From: Zymoseptoria tritici IPO323
Taxonomy: Eukaryota > Ascomycota > Dothideomycetes > Mycosphaerellales > Mycosphaerellaceae
Direction: 5' to 3'
Assembly: GCF_000219625.1 (NCBI RefSeq)
Contig: NC_018207.1
Span: 496,001 to 560,000, forward strand
DNA length: 64,000 nt
Positions within the stretch are counted from its first letter, which is position 1. The number at the start of each line of letters is the position of its first letter. Positions 4,925-6,847 of the stretch are shown here, in pieces. The notes under the pieces were generated by a model that was given only the letters and a program-made list of their open reading frames with translations, did no database searches and had not been told where the DNA came from. The translations under genes and the position numbers were made by a program.

Positions 4925-5439
4925 TTACTCCTCTTTGGTCTCCGGCTCCGCTTCGGCCTCGTCAGCAGCATAGGCCTCTCCAAACTGGGAACACGGAGAG
5001 CCGACGCCGCAGCGCTTCCCGATGTCTTACCAAGACATCAGTCAGTACACCAGAGCTGGACAATCCAAGCGCGCAGCACCGGGGCTTACCATTGATCTCG
5101 GGCTCACGCTTGACTGCGACCGCATCGGCCACTGGTCTCGCCGGCTTCGTAGGCCTTTCCCCACAGAGAGCATGGAGAGCCGACTCCGCAGCGCTTTTCG
5201 ATGACTTCTAAGGATACATGTCAGTATAGCTGGACGATCGAAGCCGTACAGAGTGGAGTACCATCGATCCCGGCTTCGCGTTCGACTTCGATCGCATCGC
5301 CCGCTGATGCTTTGAGCGGCGCCTGTGTAAGTCAGCTACATGCCAGGGAGTGTTTGGCCAGACAACCACCTACTGCGATTGCTGCGGCGCTGAAGTATGC
5401 CAGGATAGCAAGTCGCCAGACAGTTGCCCGTATTTGCCA
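4925..5439 (-). pseudogene. Kex2-type repeat peptide precursor (dikaritin RiPP- or alpha-pheromone-like), apparently decayed
   Basis: On the minus strand four blocks join by splicing: 5374..5439, 5262..5322, 5090..5207 and 4925..5025. Block 1 encodes a signal-peptide core (LAILAYFSAAAIA). After a 51-nt intron comes APLKASAGDAIEVEREAGID. Two repeats follow, each with a KR site directly before a near-identical peptide: KRCGVGSPCSLWGKAYEA and KRCGVGSPCSQFGEAYAA. The product ends with an EAEAEPETKEE tail and TAA. Each repeat is preceded by a phase-1 intron with a TACTGAC branch site. Two defects are seen. No ATG precedes block 1 in frame (a TGA lies at 5440..5442). Block 5090..5207 is 118 nt, one base out of frame between the AYEAGETS and ADAVAVKREPEIN segments. 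Kex2 sites, EA-rich spacers and the secretory leader fit either a RiPP precursor or a mating pheromone. The UstYa neighbour favours the first. Confidence 0.6.
4960..5300 (-). repeat. Intron-containing tandem repeat, two units
   Basis: The DNA from about 5262 down to 5146 and from about 5131 down to 4969 forms two diverged copies of one unit. Both have the same order: EREAGID or KREPEIN coding end, intron, KRCGVGSPCS coding block. Shared features include GCGCTGCGG.GTCGGCTCTCC, the TACTGAC branch site and the phase-1 splice position. The intron is therefore part of the duplicated unit. Confidence 0.7.
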
Positions 5440-5921
5440 TCACTATTGTGGTTGTAGGTTAGTACCAGACTGCGACGGGAGCAAGAAGGACAATGAGAGC
5501 GAGCAAGAATACGTGAATAGATGCTAATGTTGGCCCAGAACTACGTCCACATTGGGATTGTAAGAGAGCTCATCGCTGCATCACGAAGCTGTGGCCTGTC
5601 AATTCTGGACCTTACCCCGGGACCGGGTGCACCGATCAACGCCTCCATGCCCATTAGCTCGCATACCATGCGAGTCTAGGTACATCGGCTCCTGCTTTCA
5701 CAATCGTCGCCCAAATCCGACGACTAAGCGGGCTGCTCGATCGCCAGGACGAACGATTGCATACCGATATGGCACCGATAATTTTCCACCAATGTCTGCA
5801 GCACGACGCCCTTGTCCTCGTGAGGTCATCGTTGTTCGCGTTCGACACAGCACCAGTCACCACATCAGTGCCGTGCGCTGCGTTCCGGAGCATCGATGCT
5901 TGAATCATTCAATCTCGAAGC
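5440..5921. promoter_or_regulatory. Shared upstream region of the peptide precursor and the UstYa-like gene
   Basis: The two genes diverge from this 480-bp region. On the minus strand near 5448..5530 a second hydrophobic reading frame (VFLLALIVLLAPVAVW) lies before a TACTAAC branch-like sequence and a TAG acceptor-like site. It may be a remnant of the original 5' exon. No specific operator is identified. Confidence 0.35.
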
Positions 5922-6847
5922 ATGATGCTCCCCAGAGAGACTGTCATGTACCTCGATCAGACCAAGGCTGTTGACTTCGAGAACCAGTCGCTCTTATCTG
6001 GAGGCAGAACGAATCAAAATGGCACCGGTCAAAGATGGTGGCCACCGTGGGCACTTCTACTGCCGATCTTGACGGCTTCACATATTCTATCTGTTGCCTT
6101 TGGATATGGTTTAGGCAAACTCAACGCCGGCAACAATGAACAGCCGATTTCGCCGTGGATGTCGAGCGTTGATAGAAGCTATCACATGGCCAGGTTCAAC
6201 GCTTTTGAGAACCCGAACAACTTCACCCTGGATTCAGCCCACGGCGGGCACGACGTTGAGGATTATTGGATCGAGGCTGGTACTTATGGTAAGACAGCTA
6301 TTCGCAATCGCCTCAAAGTACTGTTCGACTGACACGCGGTACAGCAAAAGCGGTCTTAGTGCCAATGGAGTATGCCGAAGACTTCGGTCTGGATCGAAAC
6401 ATTCACCAATACTTCGAGCCGTCGACAGCCCACGTCCCATACGCTGGCTTTCCCGCCAACATCCAAGCCATGCACCAAATGCACTGCATCGACTTCCTTC
6501 GCCAAGGTCTATTCTTCAACTACGAGTTCTATCGAAGCATCCACCCGGTAGCATGGATCGACAGCACGCCGGAGCTTATAGTCAAGCACTTGTCGCATTG
6601 TATAGACGTGCTGCGCCAGCATGTCATGTGCGAGGCCGACCTTCGCGTCACGGGGTTCTTGAAGAACGGACCTCCTGACTTCGCCACGGAGAAACAGTGT
6701 CGGAATTTCACTGCTGTGAGAGACTTTGCGGTGGAGCATCAGTGGGAAGGCGCTGATGATAATCAAGATGTTGACGATCATCATCGTGGTTATAGGACTG
6801 TTGTCCCTCCTCGATTGTCAGCAGAAGAGTTGTGGAGGGGCTATTGA
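5922..6847 (+). CDS. UstYa-family (DUF3328) oxidative RiPP-maturation protein
   Basis: Two exons, 5922..6288 and 6345..6847, are joined by a 56-nt intron (GTAAGA donor, ACAG acceptor) to give 289 aa. A short cytosolic N-terminus is followed by one membrane segment at about residues 41-66. The lumenal domain carries the two HxxHC motifs that define the family: HQMHC at 166-170, within MHQMHCIDFLRQ, and HLSHC at 204-208, within LSHCIDVLRQ. UstYa/UstYb proteins catalyse oxidative cyclisation in ustiloxin, asperipin, phomopsin and related ribosomal peptide pathways. The motif residues are intact, so this gene looks functional. Its divergent neighbour encodes a repeat precursor of the type such enzymes act on. 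A second Met at 5946 is a possible alternative start. No P450, peptidase or other tailoring gene is seen before the transposon island begins at about 7.68 kb. Confidence 0.85.

What the first reader, a model, noticed from the sequence alone, without database searches (positions are those of the whole stretch)
4925..6847. Repeat-peptide precursor divergent from a UstYa-family gene: minimal dikaritin-type RiPP locus
Seen: a secretory leader, two KR-flanked near-identical peptides (KRCGVGSPCSLWGKAYEA and KRCGVGSPCSQFGEAYAA), and 480 bp away a DUF3328 protein with two intact HxxHC motifs. Known: ustiloxin, asperipin-2a, phomopsin and victorin loci pair Kex2-processed repeat precursors with UstYa-type oxidases. 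Inference: this is a RiPP locus with a Cys-containing core, unlike the Cys-free cores of the characterised examples I know. The competing reading is an alpha-mating pheromone, which also has KR sites, EA spacers and a Cys-x(n)-Cys core.
Basis: partly seen in the sequence, partly recalled or inferred. Interest (0 to 1): 0.86.

Follow-up and report, generated by a model that had tools for sequence, protein, structure and literature searches.

The report
Broken repeat-peptide gene beside UstYa oxidase
In this strain of a wheat fungus, a gene for a small repeated peptide with two cysteines lies back to back with a gene for a peptide-modifying enzyme; it is very unlikely to be the fungus's mating pheromone gene, and it is out of frame here although an intact version exists in another strain.

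Summary
The genome matches Zymoseptoria tritici IPO323. On the minus strand, 4925-5440, two tandem units (spacer exon, intron, KR-CGVGSPCS exon) follow a hydrophobic leader. A UstYa (PF11807) gene with two HxxHC motifs, 5922-6847, starts 481 bp away in the opposite direction. The IPO323 precursor is broken: the leader has no in-frame ATG, and the frame changes between the repeats. Strain 1A5 encodes an intact 112-residue protein; strain 1E4 shares the frame change, so an assembly slip is unlikely.

The mating-pheromone reading is rejected: IPO323 carries an intact six-copy WCGA(I/L)GAPC precursor on chromosome 7, about 368 kb from the nearest UstYa match, and IPO323 is mat1-1 and can act as male.

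Best reading: a small UstYa-linked Kex2-repeat (dikaritin-like) peptide locus, polymorphic in the species and decayed in IPO323, whose repeats join a pheromone-like cysteine pair with a conserved tyrosine. UstYa action on the peptide is inferred, not shown. Descent from the alpha pheromone is possible but weakly supported (BLASTP E 0.005).

The parts
4925..5440 (-). Kex2-repeat precursor gene, broken in this strain
   Evidence: Two units and three introns; gene model supported by the intact 1A5 protein P0001; frame breaks
5374..5424 (-). Hydrophobic leader piece TVWRLAILAYFSAAAIA, with no in-frame ATG
   Evidence: the matching leader in P0001 is MKYSVSLAILAYFSAAAIA
5323..5373 (-). Intron 1, 51 bp
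   Evidence: GT...AG, absent from P0001
5262..5322 (-). Spacer exon of unit 1, APLKASAGDAIEVEREAGID
5208..5261 (-). Intron 2, 54 bp, inside unit 1
   Evidence: GT...AG with TACTGAC; aligns with intron 3
5143..5196 (-). Repeat 1, KRCGVGSPCSLWGKAYEA
   Evidence: its frame ends at the stop 5106-5104
5026..5089 (-). Intron 3, 64 bp, inside unit 2
   Evidence: GT...AG with TACTGAC
4964..5017 (-). Repeat 2, KRCGVGSPCSQFGEAYAA
   Evidence: the frame runs on to the stop 4927-4925
5441..5921 (.). Intergenic stretch between the two divergent ATGs, 481 bp
5922..6847 (+). UstYa-family (DUF3328) gene, 289 aa, exons 5922-6288 and 6345-6847
   Evidence: PF11807 E 2.3e-30; P0002 of strain 1E4 98% identical

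Best explanation
The locus is a small UstYa-linked Kex2-repeat peptide locus of the dikaritin-like kind, intact in at least one Z. tritici strain and decayed in IPO323. In the intact form (seen as sequence in strain 1A5) a leader takes the precursor into the secretory pathway and Kex2 cuts after KR. This would release two copies of a 27-28 residue peptide, CGVGSPCSQFG(K/E)AY(E/A)A... A disulphide may join C1 and C7, and the divergently encoded UstYa oxidase may cross-link at the conserved Tyr-14. Shown: gene structure, an intact allele elsewhere, the frame breaks in IPO323, an intact UstYa gene next door. Inferred: secretion, Kex2 cutting, disulphide, UstYa action and any biological role.
For: UstYa gene 481 bp away and divergent, with both HxxHC motifs. 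Intact two-repeat proteins: P0001 in 1A5 and, in Z. brevis, P0004. Tyr is kept in 6 of 6 repeats of 1A5, Z. brevis and IPO323, and Tyr is the cross-linked residue in ustiloxin, phomopsin and asperipin-2a (PMC7329392, section 7 read). In 5 of 12 UstYa neighbourhoods of this genome (13 of 40 merged places) an obvious Tyr-containing Kex2-repeat frame lies within about 3 kb. DUF3328 genes peak at the position next to such precursors. In 1E4 the UstYa protein P0002 and the precursor P0005 both list a contig of 1,471,258 bases.
Against: Only two repeats, and a cysteine pair not seen in the best pairs of the other five UstYa-linked repeat frames. No tyrosinase, P450 or methyltransferase among the 10 further window frames tested, which are only part of those listed. 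UstYa matches are many in this genome (61 pieces, 40 merged places, a lower bound), so a chance neighbour is possible. The UstYa protein search listed only P0002 and one metagenome protein, P0003; no Z. brevis UstYa was listed, though clustering at 90% may hide one. In Z. brevis the residues before repeat 1 are ER, not KR. Seven of 12 scanned neighbourhoods gave no counted repeat frame.
Confidence: 0.58

Rival explanations
1. A linear, disulphide-closed secreted peptide (signal or effector) from a Kex2-repeat precursor; the UstYa gene is an unrelated neighbour.
For: Cysteine pair like that of alpha pheromones; 40 merged UstYa places in the genome, so neighbours by chance occur. In the survey of PMC7329392, 78% of Kex2-repeat genes had no DUF3328 gene nearby.
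Against: Direct divergent adjacency, conserved Tyr, and UstYa-linked repeat frames elsewhere in the same genome.
Confidence: 0.3
2. It is the alpha mating pheromone precursor of the species.
For: KR sites, a C-x5-C core with G-x-P-C, EA-rich spacers; BLASTP E 0.005 with the chromosome 7 precursor.
Against: An intact six-copy GNSF(V/T)GWCGA(I/L)GAPC precursor of 358 aa lies on chromosome 7. The window gene is broken in IPO323, which is mat1-1 and can act as male (PMC6331196, passages; MATalpha match). In print 3 of 216 pheromone-type precursors had a DUF3328 gene nearby (PMC7329392, passages).
Confidence: 0.04
3. The frame breaks are errors of the IPO323 assembly and the gene is intact.
For: Two separate frame changes in one short gene.
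Against: From QSQRRSKHQ to its end, the 1E4 protein P0005 equals the IPO323 out-of-frame reading of unit 1 running into unit 2. Its start, MANTGNCLA, also equals IPO323, but the next residues differ.
Confidence: 0.05

Closest known systems
UstYa-linked fungal RiPP precursors (dikaritins: ustiloxin, phomopsin, asperipin-2a)
   Same: Secreted precursor with Kex2-separated repeats, Tyr in the repeat, UstYa-family gene next to it
   Different: Two repeats only; a cysteine pair in each repeat; an intron inside each unit; broken in this strain; no product known
Alpha mating pheromone precursors of non-Pleosporales Dothideomycetes (two conserved cysteines, PMC6339444)
   Same: KR sites, Cys pair with G-x-P-C, EA-rich spacers
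   Different: No W before the first Cys, five instead of six residues in the loop, UstYa neighbour; the likely true precursor of this genome is on chromosome 7
Rutstroemia Ccg-4 homolog with a DUF3328 gene two genes away (PMC7329392)
   Same: Pheromone-like repeats near a UstYa-type gene
   Different: That one is a recognised pheromone homolog with 15 Kex2-separated sequences; here the likely pheromone gene is separate

Membership tests
Dikaritin-type (UstYa-linked Kex2-repeat RiPP) locus | UstYa/DUF3328 gene next to the precursor | tested here: met
   PF11807 gene 481 bp away, divergent
Dikaritin-type (UstYa-linked Kex2-repeat RiPP) locus | Signal peptide and Kex2-separated near-identical repeats in one frame | tested here: inconclusive
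   Met in the 1A5 protein; not met in IPO323, where the frame is broken
Dikaritin-type (UstYa-linked Kex2-repeat RiPP) locus | Tyrosine in the repeat | tested here: met
   6 of 6 repeats of 1A5, Z. brevis and IPO323
Dikaritin-type (UstYa-linked Kex2-repeat RiPP) locus | Cross-linked cyclic product made by UstYa | not testable with these tools
   Needs LC-MS and gene deletion
Alpha mating pheromone | W-C-x3-G-x2-C repeat as in the pheromone on chromosome 7 | tested here: not met
   R-C-G-V-G-S-P-C: no W, loop of five
Alpha mating pheromone | The genome's Ste2-ligand precursor, whole in a fertile mat1-1 strain | tested here: not met
   Broken in IPO323, mat1-1 and able to act as male; another six-copy precursor exists

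The most novel reading that the evidence does not exclude
The gene is a side branch of the alpha mating pheromone that came under a UstYa oxidase: a pheromone-derived, cysteine-looped, tyrosine-cross-linked peptide, now present as intact and broken alleles within Z. tritici. It would be a case of the pheromone-to-cyclic-peptide route proposed in PMC7329392.
Probability: 0.15. Interest if true: 0.72.

Novelty: new variant of a known kind. Interest (0 to 1): 0.45.

Why it matters
If UstYa acts on this peptide, it would be a dikaritin-like product with a cysteine pair, and a test of whether pheromone-like precursors can turn into modified peptides. Intact and broken alleles in strains that have been crossed (1A5 and 1E4, PMC3681731, passages) make the question testable. 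Separately, the likely alpha pheromone of an important wheat fungus, GNSF(V/T)GWCGA(I/L)GAPC, is located on chromosome 7.

Tried and rejected
Alpha-pheromone reading: tested and rejected (see rivals). On the way, W-C-x3-G-Q-x-C gave 6 hits in the genome, control 2; none of the 6 showed a KR-flanked repeat in about 300 bases before and 400 after. Two G-Q-x-C-(x)-KR patterns gave 24 hits (control 10) and 15 hits (control 22). All 39 places were fetched; 30 of the 39 loci printed the motif with 60 residues either side, nine printed none, and I saw no repeated pheromone in those printed. C-x3-G-Q-x-C alone gave 257 hits, control 111, of which only the first 100 were listed. A chain of published and recalled pheromone motifs gave one chance hit, E 1.09. 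The looser W-C-x3-G-x2-C pattern gave 156 hits, control 138, first 100 listed, and showed the six-copy cluster on chromosome 7. A CG-G-PC pattern gave 13 hits against 18 for its control; the only clustered pair is the window's.

Further copies of the window gene: a search with P0001 gave four matches, all pieces of this gene.

Homology to the chromosome 7 pheromone: BLASTP E 0.005 for one comparison. Shuffled cores reached the score in 68 and 9 of 20,000. The cores were chosen after the likeness was seen, and E- and A-rich spacers inflate it, so this is suggestive only.

UstYa among solved structures: none at E 0.001. No structure prediction was run. Pfam found no family in either precursor piece above its cut-off.

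L065 (repetitive in several frames and on both strands) and L066 (single weak pairs) gave repeat-like frames that I did not count; L057, L058, L060, L062 and L067 gave none. The coding frame in the five counted loci is my judgement, and the UstYa piece of L063 is below the family cut-off. This scan does not see the window gene itself, whose repeats are split by introns.

Print: no paper of the held library contains CGVGSPC, WCGAIGAPC or two longer strings. Supplementary tables could not be read, so published tables of Kex2-repeat proteins may already list either gene. Other paper searches for a Z. tritici pheromone and for UstYa with Zymoseptoria showed no paper on this locus in their listings. 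PMC6265332 held none of six terms. PMC7513301 was not seen beyond its listing, as one search failed.

Full report
Where it is. The window is contig 12, 496001-560000, of a genome of 39,686,251 bases in 21 contigs. Size and number match what I recall of Zymoseptoria tritici IPO323. A MATalpha match at contig 13, 622448-622609 (29 bits, cut-off 28.1) falls inside the mat1-1 marker position, chr13 621930-622924, that PMC6331196 gives for IPO323 (passages seen). The closest proteins of both genes are from Z. tritici.

What is there. On the minus strand, 4925-5440 holds a small gene: a hydrophobic leader piece, an intron of 51 bp, then two units, each made of a spacer exon, an intron (54 and 64 bp) and a peptide exon with KR-CGVGSPC. 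The units align through exon and intron, so this is a tandem duplication. On the plus strand the UstYa gene runs 5922-6847 with one intron, 289 aa, PF11807 at E 2.3e-30. The two ATGs are 481 bp apart and divergent. To the left lies a mitochondrial carrier gene. To the right, from about 8 to 26.5 kb, is an AT-rich island with TpA/ApT of 1.6-2.1 and (CpA+TpG)/(ApC+GpT) of 0.2-0.6, against about 0.5 and 1.2 in the flanks at 1-4.9 and 27-40 kb; I take this as the mark of repeat-induced point mutation (recalled criterion).

The precursor is broken here. The leader piece has a stop just upstream and no in-frame ATG; the ATG at 5440 is in another frame. The first repeat's frame ends at a stop at 5106-5104, and the second unit is open in a different frame. 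Strain 1A5 encodes P0001, 112 aa, with leader and both repeats in one frame, which also supports the three introns. Z. brevis has P0004, 126 aa, 77% identical, with ER in place of KR before repeat 1. Strain 1E4 has P0005: it starts MANTGNCLA as in IPO323, then differs for a few residues, and from QSQRRSKHQ to its end equals the IPO323 reading of unit 1 out of frame and unit 2 in frame. So the change of frame between the repeats is an allele and not an assembly slip. The 1E4 UstYa protein P0002 is 98% identical to the IPO323 one, and P0002 and P0005 both list a contig of 1,471,258 bases.

It is not the mating pheromone. A pattern search found six clustered W-C-G-A-(I/L)-G-A-P-C copies at contig 7, 273158-273844. 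The fetched stretch holds one open frame of 358 aa from MKLAVSTV with six GNSF(V/T)GWCGA(I/L)GAPC repeats, KR sites and EA-rich spacers. The nearest UstYa match listed on that contig is about 368 kb away. Ste2 is present on contig 1. IPO323 is mat1-1, and both IPO323 and its partner can be male or female (PMC6331196, passages), although the window gene is broken. That the chromosome 7 gene makes the Ste2 ligand is inferred from its form, not tested. In print, 3 of 216 pheromone-type Kex2-repeat proteins had a DUF3328 gene nearby (PMC7329392, passages).

Is UstYa its partner? The genome has 61 UstYa pieces, 59 above the cut-off, that merge to 40 places; these are lower bounds. In 12 neighbourhoods covering 13 of these places, 5 held an obvious Kex2-repeat frame within about 3 kb of a UstYa match: TDDGDDAAVYAYAPS, DEAYDYPRDSGYSFITKPEEETEQKVKA, DPEAQRGGIMDYI, DAVAKDEAADYINYGE and (A/S)ISPSVESYDGASVE types. 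The best pair printed for each has Tyr and no Cys. PMC7329392 (sections 7 and 9 read) reports that DUF3328 genes peak at the position next to such precursors and that Tyr is more frequent in their repeats (65.6% against 38.2%). The window precursor keeps Tyr in 6 of 6 repeats of 1A5, Z. brevis and IPO323 and adds a Cys pair. Against the pairing: UstYa genes are many, no Z. brevis UstYa was listed among the protein hits, and no other tailoring enzyme was found among 10 further window frames, of which 5 had a Pfam family. I favour a UstYa-linked precursor, at 0.58, over a chance neighbour, at 0.30.

Kinship to the pheromone. CGVGSPCS and CGAIGAPCA differ by one residue in loop length. BLASTP of P0001 with the chromosome 7 protein gives E 0.005. 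Shuffled cores reached the score in 68 and 9 of 20,000. Descent from the pheromone is possible but unproven; it is the boldest reading left open, at 0.15.

Verdict.

Noticed in passing
L055 (G000:C7:268000-277999), minus strand, 4877-5953: Intact 358-aa precursor with six GNSF(V/T)GWCGA(I/L)GAPC repeats, the likely alpha mating pheromone of IPO323; two further C-x(5-6)-C stretches lie near its C-terminus.
   Followed up: partly
window 8000-26500: AT-rich island with dinucleotide ratios typical of repeat-induced point mutation, bordering the locus.
   Followed up: partly
L056, L059, L061, L063, L064: Five other Kex2-repeat frames with Tyr within about 3 kb of UstYa matches in the same genome.
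   Followed up: partly
L065 (G000:C13:832000-841500), 1335-2491: A DNA tandem repeat near a UstYa match is repetitive in several frames on both strands; whether it codes for a repeat precursor is unclear.
   Followed up: no
P0004 (Z. brevis): The residues before the first repeat are ER instead of KR, so the first Kex2 site may be lost; its extra stretch after the leader looks like an unspliced intron in the gene model.
   Followed up: no
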